Shown here: one piece after another, positions 38,421 to 56,677 of the stretch
Layout: every line of letters begins with the position of its first letter
Numbering within the stretch: the first letter of the stretch is position 1
NCBI GenBank assembly: GCA_019914945.1
Contig: CM034106.1
Span: 3,472,001 to 3,536,000 of the forward strand
Length of the DNA: 64,000 nucleotides
Direction of reading: 5' to 3'
Source of the DNA: Typha latifolia
Taxonomy: Eukaryota; Streptophyta; Magnoliopsida; Poales; Typhaceae
Made by a program: the position numbers and the translations under genes
The notes under the pieces: model-generated
Databases searched by the model: none
The model's input: only the letters and a program-made list of their open reading frames with translations
What the model was told of the DNA's origin: nothing

Positions 38421-38499
38421 CCAGCAGCAAACCGTCTCGGTTCTCCAACTCTGGATGGCTCTCTGGATCATCCAACACCTCCTGTAACAATCTCAAAAT

Positions 38500-39990
38500 A
38501 TCTGGGTCAGATGTATATGCATACCTCAGCTAATCAAGAAAACAAAAAGTAAAAAAAGAATAGGCTGCAAGCTCGGCGGTATCGGGTTGGCATGATAGTG
38601 TATCCACCGCTGTATATTTTGTTCCTTTCTTGTATTGAATTTCATAATCATACCCCAGCAATTTTGTGACCCATCTCTGTTGTGCCGGAGTGTGAATACG
38701 CTGTCCCATAAAATAAGGAAGGCTCCTTTGATCAGTTCAGATAATGATTCGCCTATCGATCAAATAAGGCCTCCACTTTATCATCGCATGCAGAATTGCC
38801 AATATCTCTCTCTCGTAAGTCGATAATTACTGAGATTTTTGTGATAAAGCTTTGCTAAGGAAGGCAATGGGATGTCCTCCTTGCATTATTAGAGCTCCTA
38901 TGCCATCTCCCGATGCATCACATTCCACAATGAACTCTTTGGTGAAGTCCGATAGCACTAAAACGGGAGCCGTCGTCATTGCTATTTTTAATTCTTCAAA
39001 GGCTATAGTGGCTTCATCCATCCATCCAAAAGAGTTCTTCTTCAACAAAGAAGTGAGAGGAGCAATGAAGCGATGATAATATTCGGTCAGCCCCAAAAAT
39101 CCTCGCAATCTTGTGGTGGTGGTAAGAATAGGCCAAGCGGTCATGCATGCTACCTTTTGAGGATCCGCCGCTACGCCTTCCGCTGAGATGATGTGGCCTA
39201 AATACTCCACTTGGTACTCCCCATAGACACTTGGACTTCTTGATCTTCAGCTGGTTTTGCTTCAACAAATGGAGTATTGGTGAGACCAAAGGGCATCACC
39301 TGAAACTCGTAGTGCCCGTCCGGAGTTCTAAATGCAGTTTTTGGCACATCGCCGGGTGAACTCTACTTTGATGATACCCGACCGTCATGTTAAGCTTGCT
39401 GAATATAGTCACCCCTACATGCTCATCTAGCAGCTCTTTTATAACCGGAATGGGATACCAGTCCTTTACGGTAATAATGTTTAGTGCCCGATACTCAACA
39501 CAAAAATGCTATGTCCCATCCTTTTTTTCGCACCAATAATACGGGCGATGAATATGAGCTATGGCTTGGTTGAATGAGGCCTTGCTCCAACATCTCGGGT
39601 AGCATCTTGGATATGTCTTTCTTTTGCACATGTGGATACCGATATGGCCTCACATTCGCTAGTGCAGCCCCGGGCACAATCTCTATGCGATGGTCCACCG
39701 TTCTCCTTAGTGGCAACTTCTTTGGTTCCTCAAATAGTCTAGCAAATTTGTCTAATAAATTAGACAACTCGATGGTAGTGTCTAAACTCATTTGAGGCTC
39801 GTATCTTGCTGGTTCTAACTAAAGAAGATAGGCCAAATCACTCGCACATGGCAGCCCCACCATTGGCTGCATTGCTGGAATTGGCGGAGTACAAACACCA
39901 TCAAGCTGCACCTCTTTGTTTCCTTGCTTAAATTTCATCCACATGCTTCAGAAATGAAAAGTGATGGGTCCCTTGTAACCACAGAGTGAC
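38500..39990 (-). pseudogene. E reverse transcriptase and RNase H, catalytic box missing
   Basis: RNase H and connection lie at 39210-38500 ([39 protein letters not shown]). The RT N-terminal part is at 39791-39495. Near 39268-39275 the codons [14 protein letters not shown] join directly to the segment PFGLTN, so the YxDD box and about 50 residues around it are gone (compare 5465-5640 in C1). Confidence 0.85.
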
Positions 39991-41790
39991 AAGGACAATG
40001 TTCACTCTACGCAGCGCCAATCGACACAAGTCCACAATGATGTCATGTCCTTATACTCGTATATCGACCCGGCGACACAAGCTCTATGCCTTAAGCTTCG
40101 TGTCGTCTCCAATAGCAACGACAAACCCCATGGTCGGTTCAGCATCCAAGCTCAATCTCCTCACTAACCTCTTGTCTAGAAAGTTGTGTGTACTCTCGGA
40201 ATCGATGAAGATGTGCACACAATTCTTTCCAACGAGTCTGTCTACCTGCAACGTCCTCGACATGGAAGTACCCGAATATGCATGCATCATTATTTCAGTT
40301 TGGATATTTTCCTCCATGCCCTCCTCAACGGCCTCCTCATGGACCTCTTCTAAACACTCTCCATCACCAACAACCTCATCGTCCTCCTCGAGAGCGTCGA
40401 TGAGCATCACACTCCCGATCGATTTGGAACATCGATGACCGGGGGTGAAACATTCATCGCATCGAAAGCAAAGGCCCTTCGTTCTTCGCTCCTCCACCTG
40501 GGTAGGTGTGAGAGTTCGAACGGGGGGTCGTATGCCTCCTCTAACATCAGAAGAAGGTCTCAAAGGTGGTCATCGTCTAGTACTCGCAGCCACTGTCTTT
40601 GAACCCACAGAATTTCTAGCTGGCATTCTAGGCGTAAACCATCCATGATGGTTGCCCCAACTTGTTTTCGCTGCCATCTCGAGAGCCTTTTTTTTTACCT
40701 CCATCCTCACGGCCTTCTCAAAGGCCTCCTTAAGAGTGGTAGGACAAAGAGCATGAACATCCACTTGTATATCTTCTCCCAGCCCTAAAATGAATGTGCT
40801 CATTAATGTCGGTTCGGGCCAAAGTGGCTCACAACAACTGCTGACACTTTCAAATTTAGCTTGATACTAAAAAATGGTCACCCTCTGAACCATCTTGCTT
40901 AATGTGGCAGTGAAATCTTCATATGCCATTGTTCCAAATCTGCGTGTAATCCTCTTACAAAAGTCAACCCAATCGGTAAATCCTCCACCACGAATAACCG
41001 ATCGATACCAATGCAATACCATTCCTTGGAGGAGAAAGCTTGCCATCTGGACCTTTGCGTCCTCCGCTGTCCCTTGATAATCAAAGTATTATTCCACTTG
41101 AAACACCCAATCCATCAGATCACCACTTTGAAAAATCCAAGTGTGCAGTTTCTCCCTCGGATAGCATTGTTGGGTTCGCAAAAGAGCGTTGGTTCTAGTC
41201 TGAACTTATGTGCTTGTTGATCTCCTTCTCTAAATCCTCGAGCAAGTCCATCACCATCTCTAAAAGGATTAACCTCATCCTTAAAGTGCCAATCCTCCTC
41301 ATCGACGAAGCGCACTAGTGTCGCTCGCCTCTCAGGTTCCATCACCGCCGGTCTTGGGTTTTATAACGGAGGTGGGGGATGATGTGTAGGCATAGGTAAA
41401 ATAGGATCATTGATACTAACATGTCACACCTGGACCTGTGGGGTATCGGTTCAGTGTGGTTCCATCGCTGGTCCTTCTTGAGGCACTGATCTTCATCGAG
41501 GAGATGACGAAGTCGATCGATTCACGACATATTCTCTTAAAGCATTATAATCATTCTGCATTGCGTCAACTCTATGCAGCAATGTTTGAAACATGCCTCT
41601 AAGTTCATCCATTAAGCCCATATTCACACCCATGGATATTGGTTGACTCAGTACTGCAGTGGTCGCTCCAAAGGAATCGGCCTCACGGTTTGGGTTATCG
41701 TGGGTTAAGTCTTCCCTTGTTGGTGTGCTCTCCATTGGTCTCCTTGTTGATGTCATTTTTCTTGTTTCAACCATTAATGGAGGTCTGAGG
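39991..41790 (-). pseudogene. E gag and protease
   Basis: The gag parts are at 41882-41493, 41345-41115 and 40803-40570. The zinc knuckle is intact, GLCFRCDECFTPGHRC, near 40480-40435. The protease box reads IFIDSESTHNFLDKRL: the active-site Gly is Glu. An acidic linker (EEDDEVVGDGECLEEVHEE) lies between knuckle and protease, as in all C copies. Confidence 0.82.
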
Positions 41791-41812
41791 TTCACCTGGC
41801 TCTGATACCAAA

Positions 41813-42602
41813 TGATAGAGTCTGTGGTACCAAATTGATAGCCTCTAATACCAAATGATAGGCTACGAAATGATTCCTTCAAAATCTAGATTTATTGTAG
41901 GAAGTAGTCCATGCAATTGAGAAAAACTATTCATCAAATATTATCTTATAGTTAGAAAATTACAAAACTAAGTGGAATCAATCCGTAACTCCCTGATCTA
42001 CGAGTTTCATATTTACACCCTTTGTAGATTCGAAATGCAACTTGGACGAAAACACGATTTATTGCGGATGATGGTGGTGGTGACGGGTGGAGTGGATGTT
42101 AGGGTTATGGATGATAATGGAGATGAGGGTGGATTGTTGATGTAGTTTAAGGGATAAAGATGCAGGGGAAGAAGTGGTTGATATCCCAAGAAAGAGGGAG
42201 GACTTGACATACGAGGGAGATTAGAAGTTATGAGAGACGTTGCTAATAGTAGAGATGGTAGGTTAGGAGAGACCTAGCCAACAAGCCAAAATAACAATTA
42301 CTAACCCTAATTCTAGAATATTCCCGCCGATTGCATCCAAACGCACCCGATCGTGTTCGAATGCACAAAAGACATTCTCTGTCGATGTGAACGCGATGCA
42401 GGCATTCGAACGTCGCGTCCGAATGCACCCAACCACGTTTGAACGCACATTTCCCATTCTCTATTTTTACGAACCTGATGCAGGCATTCACAAATGCGTT
42501 CTAACATGCCCCCAACCGCGTTTGAACGCGACGTACAAAAACTTTATTTTAATAAAAATATATAACTAATGCAATAAGAAAAGACCCTAACTAAATGTAT
42601 CA
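41813..42602 (-). mobile_element. E 5' LTR
   Basis: It begins on the minus strand TGATACATTTAGTTAGGG at 42602. The inner end TGATAGAGTCTGTGGTACC at 41813 is next to a leader primer site (CTCTGATACCA, 41801). Two degenerate units (GTGGTACCA, CTAATACCA) lie inside the LTR. The palindrome array (42333-42533) has decayed copies and includes the 20-bp phrase shared with Sireviruses (42375-42394). Confidence 0.8.
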
Positions 42603-42942: not shown

Positions 42943-43843
42943 TGATACGATCATGCCTCTAGCTATGGAGCTCTAAACCAGCTTGATACGATCTCGTCTT
43001 TTTGGTGAAGGGTCGATCTCTTCCAATTCTTGATCTGGACTAGATCTGGCACGGAACCTTGAAATAAGATCCCGAAATATCCCGCCGTCGGATCGACGTG
43101 AAACTTTGATATGTTTTAATCCCAGGAAAGAGCTTTCCAAAAAATCTAGTTTCAGGCGAATCGGAGTTGGGGATCTCGAGATATCGTTCGTTTAGTGGAC
43201 GAACATCAGGATGCTCTATTTTGGATCCGTGGATGGAGGCACGAGATCCTAGGTAATGGTGGATGGTGGACCGGCGTTAATGTGGTGGCACCGGTGAAAA
43301 GTGATGGTGGAAGGGTTGTGGTTGATGGAAGGATTAGGGCAAGTGTGGGATAGATTGGCCGAAGGGGGAGAAGAGGGCCACCCCTAAGGGACTAGGGTGA
43401 TTAGCCGGACGAGGGAGGTTAGAAGTGGCGTCGCCGGGGATTGATAGAACGGGAGCGAAGAAGACGAAGGAGGCAAGGCAAAACTCAATCTCAATAATCA
43501 ATAACCAATTTGGTTGCCTACCACATCCTTTTATAGGCTAACCAACAACTCAAATTAACCCTAAAAACACAATTTTCGTCGACCGCGTTCGAACTCGCCT
43601 GACCGCGTTCGAACGCACCGAGTTCGCTCTTCTGGATTTGCGAACGCTATGCAGGCGTTCAAACGCGCAATCGAACGCGCTTGTCGGTATTTGCGAACGC
43701 GATGCAGGAGTTCACAGTGCGTTCGAACGCACCGCGTTCGAGCGCATAGTACATTCTCTTCACCACGTTCACAACCCCGTTCACAAACCGCGTTCGAACT
43801 CACTCCACCCGCGTTCAAACGCGACTTACAAAAAACTTATTTT
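42943..43843 (-). mobile_element. D1 3' LTR, U3 start deleted
   Basis: It begins (outer end) TGATACGATCATGCC and contains one primer-site-like unit (GCTCTAAACCA, about 42972). A palindrome array lies at 43581-43820. At about 43844 a filler with one more palindrome (43858-43869) joins it to the chromodomain end, so the polypurine tract and about 100 bp of LTR are lost. Confidence 0.8.
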
Positions 43844-43869
43844 AAAGGACCGTCACAGTGCGTTCGAAC

Positions 43870-44334
43870 GCGTCAGTAGATTTGCCCAGCCACTCAATTA
43901 GCACTTCAGTCTCTAATCTGATCCCATGGCGTCTTCTCCTGCAGCCTAATACTCGGACCAGTTCAGTGGGGCCATCCTACTCCATTAGTTCAGGTAAGGC
44001 CGAACCCACCACATGGTTAGGCCTGATCTGGGCCTTCAATGCTGATACATTGAAGACCGGATGTATCCTGGTTCCTTCAAGTAGGTCCAACCGGTAAGCT
44101 ACTGGACTGATTCGTTGTAGCACTCGGTACGGACCGATACGGTTGAGCTCGAATGAACACCAATTGATCCACCTCAAATTCTCGCTCACGTCGGCCTTTG
44201 TCATGAGTTTGCTTCATGCGGTTTTGGGTTGTGGCTAGGTGAGTCTTGAGCAGTCTCAATGTTTCATCTCGATCAGCAAGCTCCAAGTCAAGCTCGGTCC
44301 TATCCGCCGCCGCGAGTCTATCATAGGCACGCAA
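43870..44334 (-). pseudogene. D1 integrase C-terminus and chromodomain-like tail
   Basis: After a frameshift at about 44355, codons continue LRAYDRLAAADRTELDLELA, THDKGRREREFEVDQLVF, then RIGPYRVLQRISPVAYRLDL and RIHPVFNVSALKAQIRPNHV. The tail (ETEVLIEWLGK-type codons) runs to about 43875 where it meets the filler. Confidence 0.78.
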
Positions 44335-46075
44335 GACAGGGGGAGTGCGCCCATAAGGGGGTCATGCCGATGCTAGAGTGATGAGCCGTATTGTATGACC
44401 ACTCAGCCCATGGAAGGAATTTGACCCAATCCTTTGGTCGTTCCGCCACAAAGCATCGCAAGTATTGCTCCAGTCCGCGATTCGCCACCTCGGTTTGGCC
44501 ATCTGTCTCGGGGTGATAAGCTGAACTCAGGTTGATTTGAGTCCCTTGCAATCTGAAGAACTCGGACCAAAGCTCACTGATGAAGATGCGATCCCGGTCT
44601 GACACTATCGTCCTAGGCATCCCATGCAAGCGTGCCACTTCCCGAACAAAAATTTCAGCAACCCTTTTTGTTGAAAACGGGTGAGACAATGTTATGAAAT
44701 GAGCATATTTGCTCAGTCTATCCACCACAACAAACACCACCGATTGTCCCCGAACCTCCGGCAGCCCCTCGATGAAGTCCATGGAAATATCCTCCCAAAT
44801 ACGCTCTGGTATAGGTAGTGGTTGTAGCAGCCCGCTAGGCTTGAGTGCCTCCGATTTGACTCGTTGGCAGATTTGACATTCACGCACATACTTTTTCACG
44901 TCCGTCTTCATTGCTGTCCATATACAGTTTTGGGCCAGCCGCTTGTAGGTACGTAATACCCCTTCATGCCCTGCTATAGGAGTATCATGGAAGTGTGCCA
45001 TCAATAGTCTCCGTAGCTCTTCGTTACAGGGTACCTTGATTCGCCCGCGCTCTAGTACTAACCCATCGCGCTCCTCGTGCTCGGGGTGGCTTGAGGAGTT
45101 CTCTCTCAACTCCTCCATGAGTTGGACCAGCTCACTATCCTCTGCACTAGCTCTCCGCAGATCTGAGAAGAAAGGAAAGATGGGCGCCGAGAAAGAAGCG
45201 AGCTCCCTTGCGACCCCTTCATTTGGAAGTTCAAGTAGCGGTTGGCTTCCATCTAGCAGCACTCTCTTGTCATTTCTCCAAAACGTCAATGTGAGGCTTG
45301 TAAAATCAAATGTCACGGGCCCCAAGCTTCGAAGCCATTGGGTCCTCAAAACTATATCGGCACCTTGCAAGGCCAACGGATAAAGATCCAATATGAAAGT
45401 TTGGCCTTGCACCTTCAATTCTGCACCTCCACAAATAGAATCCACTCGCAATGTGGTGCCATCTCCAATCATCACATCGAACCCTTCCATGGGTTCCGAC
45501 TCGAGCCCAATCTTCCTAAGGAGCCTCTTGTCAATAAAGTTGTGGGTGGACCCGGTGTCAATCAAGATTCTCACTGTGGTTTTCTTGACTAGCCCGTTCA
45601 CCCGCAAGGTCTTTGGCGTAGCTGTCCCCGAATAGGCGTGGAGGGAGATTTCGGCTATCATGTCCTCCACGGGTTGCTCCTCAGCTTCTTCTCCTTGATG
45701 TCTAGCCACATCTGCACCTTCAGCTGCAAACTCGTCCTCCGCTTCCTCCAATCCATCGATTAGCATCACCGATGCCATCGGTTTAGCACAGCGATGCCCG
45801 GGTACAAACTTCTCATCACAACGGAAGCTTAGGCCCTTGGCTCTTCTTTCTTCTACTTGGGCTGGTGTGAGTGCTCGTCCCGGACCTCTAGGTGCATACT
45901 TCACATCTTGGGATGGCTTCAAGGGTGCTCGAGGAGGTACCACTGTAGTAGCAACCCTTGGTACTCCGATAGTATTTCCCGCCGCTATGTTTGGTTGAGC
46001 TTGATTGCGGCTTCCTTGGCTTGTTGAAGAAGGTTTCGGCCACGCCCGTATTTCCCACAGCATCTCCATCATCAT
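44321..46075 (-). CDS. D1 open frame of 584 codons: gag tail, protease and integrase fused across an RT-RNase H deletion
   Basis: Residues 1-100 are gag linker with a knuckle lacking its first Cys (GLSFRCDEKFVPGHRC). Protease follows with an intact box ILIDTGSTHNFIDKRL (residues 170-185). At residues 281-295 the protease end (LLDGSQPLLEL) passes into the spacer that normally follows RNase H (FSAPIFPFFSDLRRA). Integrase follows: H361/H363/H370 and C400/C403 for zinc, and the full triad D433, D493, E529 (QTEVANRG). It ends by frameshift at residue 573. An open frame of this length with intact active sites suggests selection or youth; translation is unproven. Confidence 0.85.
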   Translation of the reverse strand: MMMEMLWEIRAWPKPSSTSQGSRNQAQPNIAAGNTIGVPRVATTVVPPRAPLKPSQDVKYAPRGPGRALTPAQVEERRAKGLSFRCDEKFVPGHRCAKPMASVMLIDGLEEAEDEFAAEGADVARHQGEEAEEQPVEDMIAEISLHAYSGTATPKTLRVNGLVKKTTVRILIDTGSTHNFIDKRLLRKIGLESEPMEGFDVMIGDGTTLRVDSICGGAELKVQGQTFILDLYPLALQGADIVLRTQWLRSLGPVTFDFTSLTLTFWRNDKRVLLDGSQPLLELPNEGVARELASFSAPIFPFFSDLRRASAEDSELVQLMEELRENSSSHPEHEERDGLVLERGRIKVPCNEELRRLLMAHFHDTPIAGHEGVLRTYKRLAQNCIWTAMKTDVKKYVRECQICQRVKSEALKPSGLLQPLPIPERIWEDISMDFIEGLPEVRGQSVVFVVVDRLSKYAHFITLSHPFSTKRVAEIFVREVARLHGMPRTIVSDRDRIFISELWSEFFRLQGTQINLSSAYHPETDGQTEVANRGLEQYLRCFVAERPKDWVKFLPWAEWSYNTAHHSSIGMTPLWAHSPCLACL

Positions 46076-46302
46076 TTAATTATTGATGGCCATCTGTCTG
46101 GAAAAAGACCCCAACACGGCTTGAATACTAGGTTCTTCCGTATTCCGATTAGATCGGGCGGTTCCATGGGTGGAAGTCCCCGCAACCGTTTCTCCCTCAT
46201 CTATTAGGATAATCTCTTCTTCATCATCTCGCCGTGCAGCCATGGATCTAGTTGTCGTCATTGGAAGCGCTTGTTGGAGGAACGGTGGCTCTGATACCAG
46301 CT
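46076..46302 (-). pseudogene. D1 gag start and primer site
   Basis: The frame in 46504-46076 includes the gag start near 46261 (MTTTRSMAARRDDEEEIILI), the same N-terminus as D2. A stop separates it from the next frame at 46075. The primer site GGCTCTGATACCA (46287-46299) lies between gag and LTR. The capsid core between gag start and knuckle is missing. Confidence 0.8.
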
Positions 46303-47296
46303 TGATACAATCACGCCTCTGGCTATGGAGCTCTGATACCAGCTTGATACGATCTCGCCTCTTTGGTGAAGGGTCGATATCTTCCAATTCTTGATCTGGA
46401 CTAGATCTGGCACGGAACCTTGAAATAAGATCCCGAAATATCCTGCCGTCGGATCTATGTGAAACTTTGATATGTTTTAATCCCAGGAAAGATCTTTGCA
46501 ACAAATCTAGTTTCAGGCGAATCGGAGTTGGGGATCTCGAGATATCGTTCGTTTAGTGGACGAACATCAGGATGCTCTATTTTGGATCCGTGGATGGAGG
46601 CAAACGAGATCCTAGGTAATGGTGGATGGTGGACCGGCGTTAATGTGGTGGCACCGGTGAAAAGTGATGGTGGAAGGGTTGTGGTTGATGGAAGGATTAG
46701 GGCAAGTGTGGGATAGATTGGCCGAAGGGGAAGAAGAGGGTCACCCCTAAGGGACTAGGGTGATTAGCCGGACGAGGGAGGTTAGAAGCGGCGTCGCCGA
46801 GGATTTATAGAATGGGAACGAAGAAGACGAAGGAGGCAAGGCAAAACTCAATCTCAATAATCAATAACCAATTTGGTTGCCTACCACATCCTTTTATACG
46901 CTAACCAACAACTCAAATTAACCCTAAAAACACAATTTTCGTCGACCGCGTTCGAACTCGCCCGACCGCGTTCGAACGCACCGAGTTCGCTCTTTTGGAT
47001 TTGTGAACGCGATGCAGGCGTTCGAACGCGCAATCGAACGCGCTTGTCGGTATTTGCGAACGCGATGCAGGCGTTCATAGTGCGTTCGAACGCACCGCGT
47101 TCGAGCGCATAGTACATTCTCTTCACCACGTTCACAACCCCGTTCACAAACTGCGTTCGAACTCACTCCACCCGCGTTCGAACGCGACTTATAGAAAACT
47201 TATTTTAATGGAAATTAAACACTAAAACATGAAATAAAAACACTCCTAAAGTGAATCCATGCTCGAGATGACGTTGGTGAAGTCCGAATCGTATCA
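46303..47296 (-). mobile_element. D1 5' LTR with one captured primer site
   Basis: It is 994 bp. The inner end begins TGATACAATCACGCCTC at 46303, then GCTCTGATACCA at 46331-46342, then TGATACGATCTCGCC, which is where the solo D LTR at 49506 begins. The LTR is thus one unit longer than that solo LTR. The palindrome array is at 46948-47188, four exact copies, directly upstream of TATAAAAG-like GTATAAAAGG on the minus strand. Confidence 0.85.
46948..47188. repeat. Palindrome array in the D1 LTR
   Basis: Four exact GCGTTCGAACGC plus variants. The spacer CCTGCATCGCGTTCRCAAA occurs twice and also appears in the C-family arrays (CCTGCATCGCGTTCACATCG at about 42385-42404, reversed). Confidence 0.88.
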
Positions 47297-47421
47297 TAAA
47301 GCCTTGCTAAGAAAGGCTATGAGATGTCCTCCTTATATTAGTACGACTCCTATGCCAACTACCGACGCATCATATTTCACGACAAACTCTTTGGTGAAGT
47401 CCAATAGAGCTAGAATTGGTG
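47297..47421 (-). pseudogene. C3 RNase H, central piece
   Basis: It holds codons for KEFVVKYDASVVGIGVVLI-type sequence (first Asp of RNase H) and AFLSKALL, and lies between D1 and the solo C LTR. It joins 42942 on one side and 48339 on the other. Confidence 0.75.
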
Positions 47422-48333
47422 TGATACACTTAGATAGAATCTTTTCTTATTGCACTAGTGTTTATTTTTATTAAAACATAATTCCTGTAGGTCACGTTCG
47501 AACGCCCTTGCGAACGCTTGCATCAATTTCGCAAATACAGAGAACGCATATTGTGCATTCGAATGTGGTCAGGTGAGCTCAAACACCCGCATTCAAATGC
47601 CTGCATTACGTTTGCACATACAGAGAACGTCTTTTAGTGCGTTCGAACGTGATCTGGCGCATTCAAATGCGATCGACGAAATGCTCTAGAATTAGGGTTT
47701 CATATTTTTTTAGGACTTGTTGGCTACCCTCTATATATATGTGGATGGCAGCCAAATTCATTATGCAATTGGATTATTAATTTCTTGCCTTCTACCTTCT
47801 CTCTAGACTTCTCCCTCCTCCCTCTTCACCATCTTTCTACCTCTAGCATTGGCAATGTTTATCCTAACTTCTAATCTCCCTTGACTGTCGAGTCACCCAT
47901 CTTCTTTGGGATCTCGACCATTTCATTCCCTTCGTCTATATCCCTTAATCACATCCACCATCCACCTTCATCTCCATATCCATCCATAACCCTAACATCC
48001 ACTCCACCCGTCACCACCACCATCACCCATGTTATTCTGTGTTCTAGTCCCTGTTATAGTTTATTTGTAGATCAGGAAGTTGCGGATCTAACCCTATTAG
48101 TTTCATAATTTTATGACTACTGGAGAATATTTGACGAATATTTTCCCACGGTTGTGCAGACTAATTCCTGTAATATATTCAGATCTTGAAGGAATAATTG
48201 CGTAGCCTATCTTTGGTTCGAGTATTTATCAATTGGTATCAGAGCTTAACAATTAGTATTAGAGCTTATCAAATTGGTATCATAGCTTAACAATTGGTAT
48301 TAGAGCTTATCAAATTGGTATCAGAGCTTAATA
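47422..48333 (+). mobile_element. Solo C-family LTR containing five primer-site units
   Basis: It begins TGATACACTTAGATAG. C3 RNase H codons resume right after it (GCCATTGTCATTGTTG). The flanks TGGTG (47417-47421) and GAGTG (48334-48338) match at 3 of 5, as expected of an old duplication. The last 105 bp (48229-48333) hold five units of TGGTATCAGAGC or variants. A palindrome array lies at about 47491-47680 and TATA-like CTATATATATG at about 47732. Confidence 0.8.
48229..48333 (+). repeat. Five tandem primer-site units at the end of a solo LTR
   Basis: Units start at 48234, 48254, 48275, 48295 and 48316 (spacing 20, 21, 20, 21): TGGTATCAGAGC, TAGTATTAGAGC, TGGTATCATAGC, TGGTATTAGAGC, TGGTATCAGAGC. 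Each is preceded by TATCA or TAACA, the LTR terminus, and AAT or ATT. Confidence 0.88.
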
Positions 48334-49505
48334 GAGTGCCATTGTCATTGTTGTTTTCAGTTTTTTAAAAGCTGTAGTGGCTTCATCTGTCCATCTAAAA
48401 GAGTCCTTCGTCAGCAAAAACGTCAGAAGAGCAGCGATCTTGCCATACCCAGCGATGAAACAGCGATAATATCCGATCAGCCCCAAGAATCCTCACAATC
48501 CTATGGTGGTAGTAGGGATCGGCCAAGTGGTCATGCATGCTACCTTTTGAGGATCCACCGCTACACCTTCCAATGAGATGAAGTGGCCTAAATACTCCAC
48601 TTGTGGTACTCCCCATAGGCACTTGGACTTCTTAATCTTTAGCTAGTTTTGCTTCAACAAATTCAGCACATCCTCCAAATGCCGCCAATGCTCCATTTCT
48701 ATCCTACTATACACCAAAATATCGTCAAAGAATACCAAGACATACCTTCGCAGTAGAGGCTAAAAAATATCATTCATGAGGCCTTGAAAAGTAGCTGGAG
48801 CATTGGTGAGACTAAAAGGTATTACCCGGAACTCGTAGTGCCCGTCCATAGTCCAAAATGTAATTTTGTGCACATCCGCCAGGTGAACTCTAATTTGATA
48901 ATACCCGGCCCTCAAGTCAAGTTTGCTGAATATGGTTGCCCCTGCCAGCTTGTCTAGTTGCTCCTCTATGATCGGAATGGGATACTGATCCTTGATGGTG
49001 ATAGCGTTAAGTGCCTGGTAGTCGACACAAAAATGCTATGTCTAGTCCTTTTTTCGCACCAATAGTACAGGCGATGAGTAAGAGCTATGACTTAGTTGGA
49101 TGAGGTCATGCTCCGACATCTCGGCTACTATCTTAGAGATAACTTCTCTTTCCATATGTAGATACCGATGCCTCATGTTCACCGGTGCAACCCTGGGCAT
49201 AATCTCTATGTGACTATCCACCGTTCTCCTTGGTGGCAACTCCTTTGGCTTTTCAAACAGTCTAGCAAATTTATCTAATAAATTAGACAAATTAATTATC
49301 GTACCCGGACTCATCATGGGCTCATCTCCTACTAGTTCTAACTGAACAAGATAGGTCAAATAACTCGCACAAGGTAGCCCAATCATTAGTTGCATTGCTG
49401 GAATTGACGGAGACCGAACGCCATCAAGTTGCACATCTATGTTTCCTTACTTAAATTTCATCCACATGCTCCGATGATCATGGCGGGTCCCAAGCTCTAC
49501 AACTA
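48334..49505 (-). pseudogene. C3 reverse transcriptase and protease tail
   Basis: The connection lies at 48622-48395 and the RT core at about 48900-48640, including an intact catalytic box [13 protein letters not shown] (about 48700-48740). The RT N-terminal part is at 49434-49042 (FEKPKELPPRRTVDSHIEIM, HDLIQLSHSSYSSPVLL). The protease end (MWMKFK) is followed by the D solo LTR at 49506. Stops and a damaged finger region make it non-functional as a whole. Confidence 0.85.
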
Positions 49506-50457
49506 TGATACGATCTCGCCTTTTTGGTGGAGGGTCGATCTCTTCCAATTCTTGATCTGGACTAGATCTGGCACAGAACTTTGAAATAAGATCCCAAAAT
49601 ATTCCGCCGTTGGATCGATGTGGAATTTTGATATGTTGTTGCCCTAGAAAAGATCTTTCCAACAAATCACGTTTTAGGCGAATCGGAGTTGTGGATCTCG
49701 AGATACCATCCGTTTAGTGGACGAATATCAGGATGCTCTGTTTTGGATTCGTGGATGGAGGCACGAGATCCTAGGTAATGATGGTTGGTGGAGGACTGGC
49801 GTTAATGTGGTGGCACCGGTGAAAAGTGATGGTGGAAGGGTTGTGGTTGATGGAAGGATTAGGGCAAATGTGGGATAGATTGGACGAATGGGGAGAAGAG
49901 GGCCACCCTAAGGGACTAGGGTGATTAGCCGGACGAGGGACGTTAGAAGCGGCGTCGCCGAGGATTGAGAGAACGGGAGCGAAGAAGACGAAGGAGGCAA
50001 GGCAAAACTCAATCTCAATAATCAATGATCAATTTGGTTGCCTACCACATCCTTTTATTGGCTAACCAACACCTCAAATTAACCCTAAAAACATAATTTT
50101 CGTCGACTGCGTTCGAACTCGCCCGACTGCGTTCGAACGCACCGAGTTCGCTCTTCTGGATTTGCGAACGCGATGCAGGCGTTCGAACGCGCAATCGAAC
50201 GCGCTTGTCGATATTTGCGAACGCGATGCAGGCGTTCATAGTGCGTTCGAACGCATCGCGTTCAAACGCATAGTACATTCTCTTCACCACGTTCACAACC
50301 CTGTTCACAAACCGCGTTCGAACTCACTCCACCCGCGTTCGAACGCGACTTACAGAAAACTTATTTTAATGGAAATTAAACTCTAAAACATGAAATAAAA
50401 ACACTCCTAAAGTGAATCCATGCTCGAGACGACGTCGGTGAAGTCCAAATCGTATCA
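49506..50457 (-). mobile_element. Solo D-family LTR without captured primer sites
   Basis: The ends are TGATACGATCTCGCC and AAATCGTATCA, with AACTA at 49501-49505 and 50458-50462. It splits the C3 protease. It is 952 bp, carries four exact palindromes (array 50107-50351) and no primer-site unit, so it is the baseline form of the D LTR. Confidence 0.93.
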
Positions 50458-50462
50458 AACTA

Positions 50463-50745
50463 CTGAGTGCCAAGGACAATATCTAGTCCTCATAATGCTA
50501 ACGGATACAAGTCCACAATGATGCTGTATCCTTGCACTCGTATACCGACCCGGCGACACAAGCTCTCCGCCCGAAGCTTCATGCCGTCTCCTATAGCAAC
50601 GTCAAACCCCCCAGTCGGTTCAGCATTCAAGCCTAACTTTCTCACTAACCTCTTGGTGTGTTCTCCATTGATCTCCTTGTTGATGCCATCTTCCTTGTTT
50701 TCACCATTAATGGAGGTCCAAGGTTAACCGAGCTCTGATACCAGA
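50463..50745 (-). pseudogene. C3 protease piece joined to gag start, with primer site
   Basis: Protease codons at 50463-50665 (LRKLGLNAEPTGGFDVAIGD-type, just after the active site) join directly to gag N-terminal codons (50666-50730), so most of gag, the knuckle and the protease active site are deleted. The primer site GCTCTGATACCA is at 50732-50743. Confidence 0.78.
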
Positions 50746-50992
50746 TGATAGGGTTCTACGGAATGATCCCTTCAAGATCTGGATTGATTGTAGGAAGCAA
50801 TCTACACAATCAAGAGAAATTATTCACCAAATATTCTTCCATAGTCAGAAAATTATAAAACTAAGTGGGGTTGATCCGTAACTCCCTTATCGACATTTTT
50901 CGTATTTATGCCCTTAGTAGATTTGAACTGAAACTTGGACGAAATCATGATATAGTGGGGATGAAGGTGGTGGTGACGGGTTGAGTGGATGG
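50746..50992 (-). mobile_element. C3 5' LTR remnant
   Basis: It begins TGATAGGGTTCTACGG next to the primer site, matches 31282-31525, and stops at GGTTGAGTGGATG. There is no primer-site unit inside. Confidence 0.8.
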
Positions 50993-51329
50993 TTTGTAAC
51001 AACCCAATCTTAAAAAAAAAAAATTATGGGCACGATGCGATCGGCCACACTGTGGCCGGCCTCGTGCCCATGCAAGTTGCGCATGTAGCTTGCGTGGTGG
51101 GGGCACCACGTGCCCGCTGCCGCTGCCAACGGACTACGGCTAGCTGGTCGCAGCGGGCCCCGGCGCCGCCACAACCTCCTCCACCGCCTCCTCTCTCTCT
51201 CTCTCTCTAAATCTCTCTCTCTATCTATTTATCTCTCTCAGTCTCTCTCTCTCCACTATCTTTCGCTTTCCTTATCGCCGACATCGACCCACCGCCACCG
51301 CCACCTTCCCGAAGCCGCCGCCACCAGTA
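50993..51329. other. GC-rich unidentified insert with a CT microsatellite
   Basis: It starts near TGTAACAACCCAATC, a form seen at the start of some LTRs, then an A run, a GC-rich stretch (CACGATGCGATCGGCCACAC, GGCCCCGGCGCCGCC) and (CT)n at 51189-51260. It separates the C3 LTR remnant from the truncated RT of K. No domain is recognisable; the composition differs sharply from its neighbours. Confidence 0.5.
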
Positions 51330-51840
51330 GAGGCCGAAAATGAGGCCTTGAAAAGTAGTTGGAGCATTGGTGAGGCGAAAGGGCATCACCGGGAACTCGT
51401 AGTCCCCGTCCGGAGTTCGAAATGCAGTTTTGCGAATATCCGTCGGGTGAACTCTAATTTGATGATACCCGGCCCTCAAGTCAAGCTTGCTAAATATGGT
51501 CACCCTTACAAGCTCGTCTAGCAGCTCCTCTATGACTGAAATGGGATGCCGGTCCTTGATGGTGATAGCATTTAATGCCCGATAGTCAATACAAAAGTGT
51601 CATGCCCCATCTTTCTTCCGCACCAATAGCATGGGCGATGAGTAAGAGCTATGACTTGGTTGTATGAGGTCTTGCTCCAATATCTCGACTACCATATTGG
51701 AGATAACATCCTTCTTCACATGTGGATACTGATATTGCCTCACATTCGTCGGTGCAGCCTTGGGTACGATCTCTATGCGATGGTCTGTCATTTGCCTTGG
51801 TAGTGACTCCTTTGGTTCCTCAAACAGTCCATCAAATTTA
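51330..51840 (-). pseudogene. K reverse transcriptase, truncated before the active site
   Basis: It reads [33 protein letters not shown] and [12 protein letters not shown], after which the sequence changes to the GC-rich insert. The YxDD box and everything downstream are missing. The RT N-terminal part (EQDLIQPSHSSYSSPMLLVR) is at 51791-51600. Confidence 0.82.
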
Positions 51841-52378
51841 TCTAATAAGATAACTCGATGGTAGTATCTGGACTCATTAGAGGCTCGTCTCCTGCTGGTC
51901 CTAGCTTAAGAAGATAGGCCAAATCACTCGCACAAGGCAGCCCCACCATCGGCTCCATCGTAGGAATCGATGGAGACCGAACGCAATCAAGCCGCACATC
52001 TTTGCTTCCTTGCTTAAATTTCACCCATATGCTCCGGAAATCAAAGGTGATGTGTCCCCAAGCTCTGCAATCTCTGAGTGCGAAGGACAATGTCCGCTCC
52101 TCGCAGTGCCAACGGATACAAGTTCACAATGATGTCATATCCTTGCACCCGTATTCCAACTCGGCGACACAAGCTCTCCGCCCTAAGCGTCGTGCCATCT
52201 TCAATAGCAACGTCAAACCCCATGGTCGATTCAGCATCCAAGCCCAACTTTCTCACTAAGCTCTCATATAGAAAGTTGTGTGTACTCTCGAAATCGATGA
52301 GGATGTGCACACAATGTTGTCTAACGAATCCGTCCATCCGCAATGTCCTTGGCGCTAAAGTACCCGAATATGCATGCA
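51841..52378 (-). pseudogene. K protease
   Basis: It reads HILIDFESTHNFLYESLVRK: the active site D-S-G has become D-F-E. The downstream fold (GFDVAIEDGTTLRAESLCRR, LYPLALRGADIVL) is well kept. The lead-in HAYSGTLAPRTLRMDG is split from gag by D2 at 52384. Confidence 0.82.
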
Positions 52379-52383
52379 TCGAT

Positions 52384-53139
52384 TGATACGATTCGGACTT
52401 CACCGACGTCGTCTCGAGCTTGGATTTACCTTAGGATAAGATTGAGTTTTAGGATAAGATTGAGTTTTAGGATAAGATTGTGTTTTAGGATAAGATTGAG
52501 TTTTAGGATAAGATTGTGTTTTAGGATAAGATTGAGTTGTTGGTTAGCCTATAAAAGTATGTGTAGGGCAACCAAAATTAGGAATTGATTATTGAGAATT
52601 GAGTTTGCCTTGCCTCCTTCGTCTTCTTCGCTCCCGTTCCCTCAATCTCCCCGGCGACGCCGCTTCTAATCTCCCTCGACAGGCCAATCACCCTAGTCCC
52701 TTAGGAGTGGCCCTCTTCTCCCCCTTCTTCCAATTTATCCATCGCTATCCCTAACTTTTCCATCATCCATAACCCTTCCACCATCACTTTTACACCGGTG
52801 CCACCCCATCAACACCGGCCCTCCACAATCCACCATTACCCAGGATTTCGTGCCTTCATCCACGGAATCCAAAAACAGAGTATCCTGACGTTCGTCTACT
52901 AAACGAACGATATCTCGAGATCCCCAACTCCAATTCGCCTGAAACTAGATCCGTTGGAAAGCTCTTTTCCGGGCCTACAACATATCAAAATTTCACAGTG
53001 ATCCAACGGCGGGATATTTCGGGATCTTATCTTAAAGTTCCGTGCAAGATCGTAACAATCTGGTATCAGAGCCATAGCACCAAAAGAGGGTTCGTATCAA
53101 GCTGGTATCAGAGCCTATAGCCGAGGAAGGATCGTACCA
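52384..53139 (+). mobile_element. D2 5' LTR with two captured primer sites
   Basis: It begins TGATACGATTCGGACTTC. The end is fixed at ...GATCGTACCA (53139) by the matching 3' LTR end at 56677 and its TCGAT flank. Inside it, TGGTATCAGAGCC occurs at 53061 and 53103. U3 carries six 18-bp repeats (52432-52539) in place of the palindrome array; TATA at 52549-52557. Confidence 0.9.
52432..52539 (+). repeat. Six 18-bp tandem repeats in the D2 U3
   Basis: TAGGATAAGATTGAGTTT (A or T at the thirteenth base) repeats six times, ending 10 bp upstream of TATAAAAG. The same block is at 55956-56063 in the 3' LTR. Other D LTRs have the palindrome array at this position. Confidence 0.93.
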
Positions 53140-53142
53140 ATC

Positions 53143-53155
53143 TGGTATCAGAGCC
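53143..53155 (+). promoter_or_regulatory. D2 active primer-binding site (third copy)
   Basis: TGGTATCAGAGCC lies three bases after the LTR end at 53139. Two upstream copies (53061, 53103) lie within the LTR, so this third copy is the one that primed the last round of reverse transcription. Confidence 0.85.
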
Positions 53156-53180
53156 ACCGTTCCTCGGACAAGCGCTTCCA

Positions 53181-54345
53181 ATGACGACCACCAGATCCAT
53201 GGCTGCACGGCGTGATGATGAAGAAGAGATTCTCCCAATAGAGGAGGAAGAGACGATTGCGGGGACTTCCACCGCGGAACCATCCGATCTAATCGGAATA
53301 CGGAAGAGCCTAGCGTTCTATCCATGTTGGGGTCTATTTCAGAGCAGATGGCCATCAACCACCAGATGATGATGGAGATGATGCGGGAACTACGGGCGCC
53401 AAGGGAAGCAATGTCTAACGGGAAGGCACCATCGACCCCACGACGCGAGTCCACCCCCTTGAATCAATCCTCACCGGTTCAGCCTTTGCAACCACAAGAG
53501 CCGCTGCTACCACCACCCTATGGGCAGAGGCAAGCAAGGATGGTTACACCAGGACCAGTTGCGGGTGAACCCATCCGACGAGCGAATCACCATGGAGACC
53601 ACATTGGAGATCAAGATCCATGGGCGGGCCGATACGATCCGGAACCACGGCGAGTTGATCTAAACCGAAGGAGGGATCATCAACCCTTCATGGTGCATCC
53701 TCCGCCGGTTAGACAAGGAGTTGGGCATGATCCGGAACGAGACAACGGCATTCGTGGACAAGTCGTGCGTCTCGAATTCCCCAAGTTCAAAGGTGGCGAT
53801 CCAATTGATTGGTTGTATAGGGCGGAGCAATTCTTTGCATACCAAGGTACGGCGGAAGAATACAAGGTGACGCTTGCAAGCTTCCACCTTGAGGATGCGG
53901 CGCTTCATTGGTTTTGATCAGCCAATGCCATTGAGGCCATCGAAACTTGGGCTGAATTTTGCGCCGATATCACACGGCGATTTGGAGTATCGGGCTATGA
54001 AGACTTTGATGCTCTCCTCTCAAAGACGGTTCAGAAGACCACAGTTGGGTCATACCAAGAAGAATTTGAGAGGATTAGTAGCCGATGTCATCCACCATGG
54101 ACGGATCGGCAACTTCGCGGCACCTTCATCTCCGGGCTGCGGGGTGACATACAAGCCGATGTGAGGGCTTTAAGGCCTAGAACCTTAAAGGAGGCCTTCC
54201 AAGATGCGGTGCTTATGGAAGACAAGCATAGAGCCATGAAGATACACTTTGGAAGCGAGTTGGACAAGCCAAGGAAGCCGCAATCAAGCTCTACCAAACA
54301 TAGCGGCGGGAAACACTAGCGGAGTACCGGGGCATCGTTGTGCTA
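53181..54345 (+). pseudogene. D2 gag
   Basis: It starts MTTTRSMAARRDDEEEILPI at 53181. A shift near 53325 moves to the frame MLGSISEQMAINHQMMMEMM, which runs through a Pro/Arg-rich region to the capsid core LEFPKFKGGDPIDWLYRAEQ and FFAYQGTAEEYKVTLASFH. TGA at 53915 replaces an expected Trp codon. The frame continues after it (AIEAIETWAEFCADITRRFG, SKTVQKTTVGSYQEEF, RALRPRTLKEAFQDAVLMED). The knuckle is mostly deleted (only PGHRCAKPMG is left). Confidence 0.85.
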
Positions 54346-54990
54346 AACCGATGGGATCGGTGATGCTCATCGATGGATTGGAGGAAGCGGAGGATGAGCT
54401 TGCAGCTGAAAGCGCAGATGTGGCTGGACATCGAGGAGAAGAAGTTGAGGAGCAAAACGTGGAGGACGTTATAGCTGAAATCTCCCTCCACGCCTATTCG
54501 GGGACGGCGGCGCCAAAGACATTGCGGGTGAACGGAGTAGTCAAGAAGACCACAAAGTGAGAATCTTGATTGACACCGGGTCCACCCACAACTTCATTGA
54601 CATGAGGCTCCTTAGGAAGATTGGGCTCGAGTCGGAACCCACGGAAGGGTTCGATGTGACGATTGGAGATGGCACCACCTTGTGAGCAGATTCTATTTGT
54701 GGAGGTGCAGAATTGAAGGTGCAAGGCCAAACTTTCACATTGGATCTTTATCCATTGGCCTTGCAAGGTGCCGATATTGATTTAGGGACCCAATGGCTTC
54801 GGAGCTTGGGGCCCGTGACCTTTGATTTTATAAGCCTCACATTGACCTTTTGGAGAGATGGTCAGAGAGTGTTGTTGGATGGAAGTAAACCGCTGCTTGA
54901 ACTTTCAAAAGAAAGGGAGCTCGCTTCTTTCTCGGCACCCACTTTTCCTTTCTTTTCAGATCTACGAAGAGCCGGTGCGAGAGGATAGTG
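54346..54990 (+). pseudogene. D2 protease
   Basis: The lead-in is at 54350-54560 (MLIDGLEEAEDELAAES, HAYSGTAAPKTLRVNG). The box ILIDTGSTHNFIDMRL is intact near 54570-54610, after a frameshift at about 54556. A TGA lies after GDGTTL (54682). The fold continues ELKVQGQTFTLDLYPLALQG to LTFWRDGQRVLLDGSKPLLE, then joins FSAPTFPFFSDLRRA at the shared RT-RNase H deletion (about 54905-54925). Confidence 0.85.
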
Positions 54991-55839
54991 ATCTGGTCCG
55001 ACTCATGGAGGAGTTGAGAGCGAACCCCTCAAGCAACCCCGAGCACGAGGAGCGCAATGGGTTAGTACTAGAGCACGGGCGAATCAAGGTACCCCGAAAC
55101 GAAGAGCTACGGAGGCTATTGATGGCACACTTCCATGATACTCCTATAGCAGGTCATGAAGGGGTATTACGTACTTACAAGCGGCTGGCCTAAAACTGTA
55201 CTTGGACTGGGATGAAGACGGACGTGAAGAAGTATGTGCGTGAATGTCAAATCTGCCAACGAGCCAAATCGGAGGCGGTTTATGGGCGCACTCCCCCTGT
55301 CTTGCGTGCCTACGATAGACTCGCGGCGACGGATAGGACTGAGCTTGACTTGGAGCTTGCTGATCGAGATGAAACATTGAGACGGCTCAAGACTCACCTA
55401 GCCACAAAGACAAAACCGCATGAAGCAAACGCATGACAAAGGCGGACGTGAGCGAGAATTTGAGGTGGATCAATTGGTGTTCGTTCGAGCTCAACCGTAT
55501 CGACAATCCACATTGAAGCCAATTTTGAACCAAAAGTTGGGATACAAGTACTATGGTCCGTACCGAGTGTGCTACAACGAATCGGTCCAAGTAGCTTACC
55601 GATTGGACCTACCTGAAGGAACCAGGATACATCCCGTCTTCCATGTCTCGGCATTGAAGGCCCAGATCGGGCCTAACCATGTAGTGGGTTCGACCTTACC
55701 CGAACCAATGGAGGAAGATGGCTCCAATGAGCCGGTTCGAGTCCTAAGTCGTAGGAGAAGACGCCAAGGATCCAGATTAGAGACTGAAGTGCTGATTGAG
55801 TGGCTGGGCAAACCTGCGACGAGTCTACATGGGAGCTAG
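54991..55839 (+). pseudogene. D2 integrase remnants and chromodomain-like tail
   Basis: The zinc-binding part is present (MAHFHDTPIAGHEGVLRTY, ECQICQRAK, 55120-55270). At about 55278 it jumps to YGRTPPVLRAYDRLAATDRT, which lies beyond the core, so the whole DDE core is deleted. The post-core part (REREFEVDQLVFVRAQPYRQ, YGPYRVCYNESVQVAYRLDL) and the tail ending ETEVLIEWLGKPATSLHGS follow. Confidence 0.85.
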
Positions 55840-55907
55840 AGACAGACATCATGGATCGCTTCCCAAATTTCAAACCTTGAGGACAAGGTTGCGGAAGCGT
55901 GGTGGAT
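55840..55907 (+). promoter_or_regulatory. D2 polypurine tract region
   Basis: TTGAGGACAAGGTTGCGGAA and GCGTGGTGGA lead up to the 3' LTR at 55908, corresponding to the C-family tract at 4403-4440. Confidence 0.65.
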
Positions 55908-56677
55908 TGATACGATTCAGACTTCACCGACGTCGTCTCGAGCTTGGATTTACCTTAGGATAAGATTGAGTTTTAGGATAAGATTGAGTTTTAGGATAAG
56001 ATTGTGTTTTAGGATAAGATTGAGTTTTAGGATAAGATTGTGTTTTAGGATAAGATTGAGTTGTTGGTTAGCCTATAAAAGTATGTGTAGGGCAACCAAA
56101 ATTAGGAATTGATTATTGAGAATTGAGTATTGAGAATTGAGTTTGCCTTGCCTCCTTCATCTTCTTCGCTCCCGTTCCCTCAATCTCCCCGGCGACGCCG
56201 CTTCTAATCTCCCTCGACAGGCCAATCACCCTAGTCCCTTAGGAGTGGCCCTCTTCTCCCCCTTCTTCCAATTTATCCATCGCTATCCCTAACTTTTCCA
56301 TCATCCATAACCCTTCCACCATCACTTTTACACCGGTGCCACCCCATCAACACCGGCCCTCCACAATCCACCATTACCCAGGATTTCGTGCCTTCATCCA
56401 CGGAATCCAAAAACAGAGTATCCTGACGTTCGTCTACTAAACGAACGATATCTCGAGATCCCCAACTCCAATTCGCCTGAAACTAGATCCGTTGGAAAGC
56501 TCTTTTCCGGGCCTACAACATATCAAAATTTCACAGTGATCCAACGGCGGGATATTTCGGGATCTTATCTTAAAGTTCCGTGCAAGATCGTAACAATCTG
56601 GTATCAGAGCCATAGCACCAAAAGAGGGTTCGTATCAAGCTGGTATCAGAGCCTATAGCCGAGGAAGGATCGTACCA
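55908..56677 (+). mobile_element. D2 3' LTR
   Basis: It is 770 bp. Compared with the 5' LTR I see CAG for CGG near 55920, CTTCATCTTC for CTTCGTCTTC near 56157, and an extra GTATTGAGAATTGA. The end GATCGTACCA is followed by TCGAT. Because it includes the two TGGTATCAGAGCC copies (about 56598 and 56640), these are LTR sequence. Confidence 0.92.

What the first reader, a model, noticed from the sequence alone, without database searches (positions are those of the whole stretch)
42943..56677. Two D elements share one RT-RNase H deletion: a non-autonomous chromovirus lineage
In both D1 and D2 the protease end (LLDGS-PLLEL) runs into FSAP-FPFFSDLRRA, which belongs after RNase H. The breakpoint is the same apart from a small indel, and the elements sit at different sites in opposite orientations with their own duplications. 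The deletion therefore preceded transposition and was inherited. The lineage keeps gag, protease, integrase parts and chromodomain but no polymerase, so another element must supply it.
Basis: partly seen in the sequence, partly recalled or inferred. Interest (0 to 1): 0.85.

Follow-up and report, generated by a model that had tools for sequence, protein, structure and literature searches.

The report
Two half-elements that complete each other
In a cattail genome a jumping-gene family seems to have split into two kinds of copies, one keeping the DNA-inserting enzyme and the other the copying enzyme, which would need each other to move, much like a virus with its genome in two pieces.

Summary
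D1 (42943-47296, minus) and D2 (52384-56677, plus) share one in-frame RT-RNase H deletion; target duplications differ and flanks are unrelated. The junction is a genome-wide family (component A: gag-PR-IN-chromodomain). RT copies with matching LTRs exist but are not full-length: they form a reciprocal lineage (component B: gag-PR-RT-RNase H) lacking integrase and nearly all of the chromodomain, also in frame. Of the 40 best B1 RT hits, 36 carry the B junction, 1 is an A/B recombinant, 3 are uninformative and none has a whole integrase. Of the 40 best A1 integrase hits, 34 carry the A junction and 6 were not examined. There are two pairs: older A1/B1 (LTR K2P 0.021-0.044) and young A2/B2 (0.0016-0.0116). 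A2 and B2 are 96-100% alike over LTR, leader and gag; A1 and B1 mostly 88-97%; between pairs 82-94%. Integrase stayed constrained between A1 and A2 (dN/dS about 0.15), as did RT (0.08-0.09) and RNase H (0.18) between B1 and B2. I read this as a bipartite chromovirus whose components complement each other and recombine. A rare unsampled full-length master is the main rival. Closest precedent: complementary endogenous pararetroviruses of rice. The host is a Typha (cattail), by protein matches.

The parts
42943..47296 (-). D1, component A1 copy (U3d1-type LTRs); has PR, IN H2C2 and rve; gag core deleted
   Evidence: TSD TAAAG both sides; Pfam RVP_2, Integrase_H2C2, rve
46303..47296 (-). 5' LTR of D1
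42943..43901 (-). 3' LTR of D1, with its U3 start replaced
44321..46075 (-). 584-codon open frame of D1: protease fused in frame to integrase
45187..45245 (-). D1 A-junction (RT-RNase H missing), break at about 45215/45216
46035..46060 (-). site of D1's gag deletion (about 690 bp), also seen in L039
   Evidence: D1 internal 267/505 against D2 internal 259/1185; for L039
52384..56677 (+). D2, component A2 copy (U3d2-type LTRs) of the rve-less subtype also seen in L012, L018, L019
   Evidence: TSD TCGAT both sides
52384..53139 (+). 5' LTR of D2; contains two PBS-like copies before the PBS that follows it
55908..56677 (+). 3' LTR of D2
53140..53160 (+). primer binding site (TGGTATCAGAGCC, the same as in the four B copies compared)
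53222..54319 (+). gag of D2 (one stop), Retrotrans_gag
54885..54945 (+). D2 A-junction (RT-RNase H missing), break at about 54909-54918
   Evidence: 40 scored places, 19 of them (D2 included) identical over all 61 bases
55270..55285 (+). site of D2's second deletion (integrase core)
55402..55839 (+). integrase SH3 domain and chromodomain region of D2
   Evidence: SH3_Tf2-1; Chromo itself found in the relative P0002
55880..55907 (+). end of coding region and polypurine tract, also present in B
36231..42600 (-). cousin chromovirus E with RT, RNase H and IN on one element (LTRs about 84% identical); old, different family

Best explanation
A chromovirus in this Typha genome exists as two reciprocal components. 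A encodes Gag-PR-IN-chromodomain. B encodes Gag-PR-RT-RNase H. Both keep the same promoter motif, LTR ends, primer site, leader, polypurine tract and Gag. Shown: the anatomy, the two in-frame junctions, insertion of partners at overlapping ages, 5' halves more alike within a pair than between pairs (nearly identical in A2/B2), A/B recombinants, and purifying selection on IN in A and on RT/RNase H in B between the two generations. Inferred: each loss happened once; both RNAs are made together; both polyproteins assemble through the same Gag; RT from B copies both RNAs; IN from A integrates both; co-packaging allows template switching that keeps LTR-leader-gag alike. D2-type copies, lacking RT, RNase H and integrase core, would be parasites of the pair.
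For: Complementarity: against the full-length relative P0237 (1627 aa), A (L040) covers residues 1143-1627 and B reaches 1171, so together all of pol. RT-selected sample B1: 36 of 40 with the B junction (23 read; 12 by coordinate pairing; 1), 1 recombinant (L041), 3 uninformative (L036, L047, L052), 0 with whole IN. B2: 8 RT copies at 98-100%; 7 lack integrase (4 by RT/junction pairing, two of them read in full; 2 read in L078/L079; 1, L077, reaches the 3' LTR too soon), 1 unresolved (L076). IN-selected sample A1: 34 of 40 with the A junction (17 pair pairs read), 6 not examined. A2: 16 of 22 integrase copies at 98-100% pair with a junction, 6 unresolved. Matched pairs: leader A2/B2 99.0-100%, gag L010/B2 98.8 and 99.9%, gag L040/B1 96.0 and 96.6%, against 86-94% for leader and gag between pairs. 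Ages: A2 15 elements 0.0016-0.0116, B2 0.0045 and 0.0070, A1 0.021-0.044 (3), B1 0.029 and 0.035. Selection: IN 0.15 (range 0.12-0.19, 18 pairs), RH 0.18 (4 pairs), RT 0.08-0.09 (4 pairs; L016 fragment pairs 0.15-0.17); bootstrap upper limits 0.13-0.32 in 7 pairs. Recombinants: L013, L041. Shared cis signals.
Against: No expression, particle or mobility data. Genome searches scored only the best 40 (DNA) or 129-150 (protein) hits, so a rare full-length copy could be missed. Cousin full-length families are present (129 places with RNase H and IN contiguous; RNase H matches lying in open frames up to 472 codons). No B frame intact end to end was read: the five B copies read over their coding region (L016, L037, L038, L058, L059) have frameshifts, stops or an insertion; nor was an A frame with gag and whole integrase both intact (the 956-codon frame of L018 lacks the integrase core). 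A1 and B1 are not homogenised everywhere: in the 3' part of the LTR they are only 79-87% alike, as far apart as the two pairs, and PR is no closer within pairs (91-93.5%) than between A1/A2 or B1/B2 (90-92%). B2 is rare (8 RT copies). The protein lists named Typha angustifolia proteins for A but none with RT (best 120 of 1968, best 120 of 1186, all 39); that annotation may be filtered for RT.
Confidence: 0.65

Rival explanations
1. A rare, full-length master element with the same LTRs still supplies all proteins, and A and B are two ordinary non-autonomous derivatives of it.
For: This is the usual arrangement described in wheat (Cereba/Quinta, Wilma/Sabrina/WHAM; PMC11302176 and PMC9744471, abstracts and passages). 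Hit lists were capped at 40, so a few copies could be missed; 6 A1 and 6 A2 integrase hits and 1 B2 RT hit stayed unresolved.
Against: 0 of 40 best B1 RT hits (3 uninformative) and 0 of 8 B2 RT hits (1 unresolved) show whole IN; 0 of 34 examined A1 IN copies have RT-RNase H at the junction. With a master at work, IN in A and RT in B should drift, yet both stay constrained across A1-A2 and B1-B2, unless these modules were exchanged with the master.
Confidence: 0.2
2. Cousin full-length chromoviruses (E-like families) of the same genome supply the missing enzymes to both A and B.
For: Such families exist, with RNase H joined to IN and some long open frames; E lies in this window.
Against: D1 IN is about 62% identical to E over 210 aa and B1 RT matches window pieces at 34-67% aa; E's LTRs are about 84% alike, so it is much older than A2/B2; 128 of 129 listed RH-IN cousins carry stops in a 306-aa stretch (ranked by likeness to P0237, so not a random sample). 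It does not explain the constraint on IN in A and RT in B. Ages of other cousin families were not tested.
Confidence: 0.1
3. The two junctions are splice products of a full-length RNA that were reverse transcribed again and again; A and B are not self-maintaining lineages.
For: The B junction is compatible with a GT...AG excision (A1 reads GAGGATA-GTGAGC at the corresponding donor side; the acceptor side in A2 is GATGAG-TCTACATGG), seen by eye in the sequences.
Against: The A junction shows no GT next to the break on the B-type protease side, by eye. A source element with both modules was not seen among the copies examined, and RT divergence B1-B2 is about as deep as IN divergence A1-A2, as for separate lineages.
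Confidence: 0.05

Closest known systems
ePVCVL and ePVCVL2 endogenous pararetroviruses of Oryza (Chen, Zheng, Kishima 2017, PMC5491270; abstract, section 8 and passages read)
   Same: Two structurally complementary non-autonomous elements, no autonomous partner found, near-identical shared regulatory region kept alike by recombination, proposed mutualism.
   Different: Pararetroviruses, not LTR retrotransposons; the split there is capsid against RT/RNase H, here integrase against RT/RNase H; here both keep gag and protease, and partners are seen at two successive ages.
RLG_Cereba / RLG_Quinta of wheat centromeres (Heuberger et al. 2024, PMC11302176; abstract and passages read)
   Same: Gypsy pair sharing LTR ends and PBS; the non-autonomous partner still encodes Gag.
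   Different: Cereba is fully autonomous; only one partner depends on the other.
[quoted passage not shown] passages read)
   Same: Long co-evolution of partners, subfamilies matched in age and, in Angela, LTR sequence; lists five partnership criteria, four of them tested here.
   Different: One partner is autonomous; the non-autonomous Sabrina and WHAM lack RT and IN together.
BARE-2, SNRE/SARE, TR-GAG, LARD/TRIM elements (recalled; TR-GAG, LARD and TRIM also named in passages of PMC4608283)
   Same: Internally deleted LTR elements amplified in trans; LTR exchange between partners (recalled).
   Different: No reciprocal loss is recalled for them.
Bipartite florendoviruses (Geering et al. 2014, recalled; seen only as reference 18 of PMC5491270)
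   Same: Retroelement genome recalled as carried in two pieces.
   Different: Endogenous pararetroviruses without LTRs or integrase (recalled).

Membership tests
Chromovirus (Ty3/gypsy LTR retrotransposon) | LTRs with TG...CA ends and 5-bp target duplications | tested here: met
   20 of 22 non-array elements have an exact 5-bp repeat at the expected ends (13 of 15 A2, 3 of 3 A1, 2 of 2 B1, 2 of 2 B2; L022 and L025 unclear)
Chromovirus (Ty3/gypsy LTR retrotransposon) | chromodomain at the C-terminus of integrase | tested here: met
   Pfam Chromo E 4e-7 in P0002, the Typha A protein; no Chromo hit in the fetched A frames tested, which stop short of it or are shifted; B keeps only its last residues
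Chromovirus (Ty3/gypsy LTR retrotransposon) | PR-RT-RNase H-IN on one element | tested here: not met
   A lacks RT-RNase H, B lacks IN; only A and B together make the set
Autonomous/non-autonomous LTR pair (criteria as listed in PMC9744471) | same PBS | tested here: met
   TGGTATCAGAGCC after the 5' LTR in 7 of 9 elements; L040 and L039 differ from it by one base each
Autonomous/non-autonomous LTR pair (criteria as listed in PMC9744471) | conserved LTR termini and promoter | tested here: met
   LTR start TGATACGATTCGGACTTCAC in 7 of 9 (L039 and L040 one change each); AGCCTATAAAA in 9 of 9; PPT stretch identical in 6 of 9
Autonomous/non-autonomous LTR pair (criteria as listed in PMC9744471) | overlapping insertion ages | tested here: met
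   A1 with B1 and A2 with B2 overlap in LTR K2P; only 3 A1, 2 B1 and 2 B2 elements dated
Autonomous/non-autonomous LTR pair (criteria as listed in PMC9744471) | matching population structure over the genome | not tested
   needs a full census; hit lists were capped
Autonomous/non-autonomous LTR pair (criteria as listed in PMC9744471) | one partner encodes all proteins | tested here: not met
   neither A nor B does among the copies examined; capped samples
Complementary non-autonomous pair (as in PMC5491270) | reciprocal coding losses | tested here: met
Complementary non-autonomous pair (as in PMC5491270) | shared region homogenised by recombination between partners | tested here: met
   A2/B2 identity 93-100% in windows from the LTR start into PR, then falling; B2 falls among A2 in the 5' trees; recombinants L013 and L041. 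Weaker for A1/B1: 79-98%
Complementary non-autonomous pair (as in PMC5491270) | trans-complementation in cells | not testable with these tools
   no expression or mobility data

The most novel reading that the evidence does not exclude
An obligately bipartite LTR retrotransposon: integrase and reverse transcriptase live on two separately integrating RNAs that must be co-packaged. The split has outlived at least one replacement of LTR and gag in both components together.
Probability: 0.55. Interest if true: 0.92.

Novelty: new variant of a known kind. Interest (0 to 1): 0.82.

Why it matters
Non-autonomous LTR elements are usually read as parasites of a complete element. Here each lineage appears to keep what the other lost, and selection seems to have kept both enzymes. 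If true, an LTR retrotransposon can split into a two-part genome and persist. That gives a genomic system in which to study how multipartite genomes arise, how partner RNAs are packaged together, and how shared ends are kept alike. It also warns annotation pipelines: RT-based searches see only B, and A passes as an RT-less orphan.

Tried and rejected
Segmental duplication of D1/D2: rejected, flanks unrelated and duplications differ. Deletion private to each copy: rejected. A full-length helper with matching LTRs: looked for from the RT side and the IN side; not found, not excluded. A first dN/dS run with protein-guided alignment was distorted by frameshifts and is discarded in favour. In one search the RT reference was empty; RT is. 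The search by likeness to the full-length relative P0237 listed decayed cousins and could not tell whether any is close to A/B. Splicing as origin: not supported for A, left open for B.

Choices that shape the counts. L009-L028 were chosen among the best hits to the D2 junction, so they say nothing about how often A lacks RT; that rests on the IN-selected samples. One RT hit (C1:12714937, L053) was uninformative and is counted as carrying the B junction only because one search places that junction 2.1 kb downstream. Array elements (L011, L013, L026-L028) and L017 (3' LTR mostly lost) were left out of the age list. D1 and L039 were left out of the leader-gag tree because of their gag deletion. 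The rve-less D2 and L018 were kept out of the A2 group in the A1/A2 dN/dS figures. The gag identity table was cut in the output; only the rows for L040, L039, D1 and L010 were seen whole.

Literature: nine paper runs on this topic and one on Typha genomes (59). Listings with the start of each abstract were seen; some were capped (15 of 22, 15 of 34, 10 of 58, 10 of 14 and 15 of 20 papers listed). None of the titles and abstract starts listed showed a reciprocal pair among LTR retrotransposons; the library holds open-licence papers only. Abstract, section 8 and passages: PMC5491270; abstract and passages: PMC11302176; passages: PMC9744471, PMC4608283, PMC10230045. The other papers: listing only.
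Full report
Host. The window is C8:3472001-3536000 of a 214-Mb genome in 62 contigs. D1's 584-codon frame matches 885-886-aa Typha angustifolia proteins at 90% over 79% of the query. T. angustifolia has 15 pseudochromosomes and 207 Mb (PMC10230045, passages), and the hits listed here lie on contigs C1-C15, with one exception (C38). So the genome is most likely a Typha; which species was not settled.

The observation. D1 and D2 are separate insertions with their own 5-bp duplications and unrelated flanks. Both join protease in frame to the start of integrase. They also differ: D1 has lost most of gag, D2 the integrase core. The junction recurs: 40 scored hits each for the two forms. Among 20 fetched loci chosen by the D2 junction there are structurally complete forms with gag, PR, IN and SH3/chromodomain (L010, L016, L021, L022, L023, L025; L017 with a broken 3' end) and secondary deletions shared between unlinked copies (integrase core in D2, L012, L018, L019; gag in L011, L013, L014).

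The partner. L016 holds an A2 element inserted in an RT-bearing relative with A1-like LTRs whose RNase H runs, after the first residues of integrase, straight into the last codons of the chromodomain. The same break occurs, with an RNase H about 90% alike, in the L013 array, a recombinant of A2 with a B. A search with that junction gave 40 scored hits of 475 candidates and a search with the RT 40 of 880. Accounting for all 40 RT hits: 36 carry the B junction, 1 (L041) continues from RNase H into A1-type rve and chromodomain, 3 are interrupted or lost, none has whole IN. Where the frame was read, B ends in the natural C-terminus of the family (...DRFTNFKP or ...DRFPNFKP, stop), in frame (L037 and L038, L059, L078 and L079). 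Pfam finds RVP_2, RVT_1 and both RNase H models in B frames (L037; RNase H in L059), and Integrase_H2C2, SH3 and rve (near or above its cut-off) in A frames (D1 without SH3 in its frame, L039, L022), with RVP_2 in D1 and Chromo in the Typha protein P0002.

The reverse test. Choosing copies by A1 integrase core instead (40 scored of 1506), 34 of 40 have the A junction just upstream (17 by pairing, 1, 16 read); 6 were not examined. For A2, 22 integrase copies stand at 98-100%, then a step to 96%; 16 of 22 pair with a junction, 6 are unresolved.

A second pair. The RNase H in L013 led to B2. L058 and L059 are B elements with A2-type LTRs, target duplications GCTGT and TCCTA and LTR K2P 0.0045 and 0.0070. 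Eight B2 RT copies stand at 98-100%, then a step to 93%: four have the B junction (two read in full, two by pairing), two more have it after a further shared deletion, one reaches the 3' LTR too soon to hold IN, one is unresolved.

Mosaic history. Percent identity: leader A2/B2 99.0-100; gag L010 against B2 98.8 and 99.9; zinc-knuckle region A2/B2 95.6-100; LTR RU5 A2/B2 95.8-98.4. A1/B1: leader 87.6-95.4 (L039 and D1 partial), gag (L040) 96.0 and 96.6, U3 93.9-95.5, RU5 88.3-92.5. Between pairs: RU5 82-87, leader 86-92, gag 93-94. PR does not follow the pairs: A2/B2 92-93.5, A1/B1 91-92, A1/A2 90-92, B1/B2 92. The private modules differ between generations by similar amounts: IN_N 91-93 and rve 93-95 (A1/A2), RT 90.5-93.8 and RNase H 90-91 (B1/B2). 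In windows along the element A2/B2 stay at 93-100% until inside protease and then drop; A1/B1 are at 93-98% over the 5' LTR part, leader and gag but only 79-87% in the 3' part of the LTR. FastTree puts A1 with B1 apart from A2 with B2 at support 1.000 for RU5 (15 rows) and for leader-gag-zinc knuckle (11 rows), with B2 among A2 copies. So both components changed most of LTR and gag together while keeping their own enzyme modules and junctions; the older pair is the less clean case.

Ages. LTR K2P: 15 non-array A2 elements 0.0016-0.0116; B2 0.0045, 0.0070; A1 0.021, 0.037, 0.044; B1 0.029, 0.035. Cousin E in the window has LTRs about 84% alike.

Selection. Nei-Gojobori dN/dS between generations: IN 0.15 (18 pairs, 0.12-0.19), RNase H 0.18 (4 pairs), gag 0.27 (A1/A2) and 0.20 (B1/B2), ZK-PR 0.30 and 0.26; RT 0.08-0.09 (4 pairs of L037/L038 with L058/L059; fragment L016 0.15-0.17). 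Bootstrap intervals for seven pairs lie below 0.33. Within subfamilies, where recent and post-insertion changes dominate, values are mostly higher (about 0.2-1.1), with few changes. If A1 and A2 share one A deletion, and B1 and B2 one B deletion, as the common breakpoints suggest, this constraint acted after the losses: A kept a working integrase without having RT, and B kept working RT without having integrase. An exchange of IN or RT modules with an unseen full-length element would weaken this step.

Mechanism. Shared PBS, PPT, LTR ends and TATA region fit joint transcription, one packaging system and one integrase; near-identical Gag would let Gag-PR-IN and Gag-PR-RT-RH assemble together. 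Co-packaging explains the recombinants and the homogenised 5' half. None of this has been shown in cells, and no copy with all its frames intact was read on either side. A2 copies without integrase core (D2, L012, L018, L019), one with a 956-codon open frame (L018), look like parasites of the pair.

Relatives. In the search of 5.8 billion proteins with L018's frame, the best-ranked full-length protein was P0237 (1627 aa, gag to chromodomain, unnamed source) at 55% over 52% of the query. A-type Typha proteins were listed (P0001-P0004; P0002 stands for 35 sequences), but none with RT (best 120 of 1968, best 120 of 1186, all 39).

Verdict. The finding is real and larger than reported. The most likely reading is a reciprocal two-part chromovirus; a rare master element remains the main rival.

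Noticed in passing
window 49507-50459 (-): Solo LTR of the A1/B1 type (93% like D1's LTRs) with duplication AACTA on both sides (by eye).
   Followed up: partly
window 36231-42600 (-): Full-length cousin chromovirus E, apparently inserted between RNase H (42602-42942) and IN (35500-36227) of a related element; D1 sits beside that RNase H.
   Followed up: partly
L011, L013, L026, L027, L028 (C9, C6, C1): Head-to-tail arrays of A2 elements sharing LTRs: unit about 3.54 kb on C1 (six junctions at that spacing), about 2.95 kb on C6, about 3.29 kb on C9; L026 and L027 look like copies of one array.
   Followed up: partly
C14:7735741-7795368: Three pairs of B-like RNase H junctions, about 3.27 kb apart within a pair and 28 kb between pairs, 91-92% like the L013 query: a possible further B array.
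   Followed up: no
ends of the LTRs, e.g. window 53060-53156: The 3' end of A2 and some B LTRs holds extra copies of the primer binding site at about 40-bp steps (3 matches in D2, L012, L015, L019; 2 in L037, L058, L059; 1 in L040), so LTR length may depend on which copy primes.
   Followed up: partly
L031: 3' LTR region made of U3d1 and U3d2 pieces, a possible recombinant between generations 1 and 2 or a nested insertion.
   Followed up: no
P0028, P0043 (contigs of 2582 and 3134 bases, unnamed sources), P0016 (Phoenix dactylifera): PR joined to IN without RT in other plant-like sequences, with other junctions; a sign that RT-less elements recur, or a gene-model artefact for P0016.
   Followed up: partly
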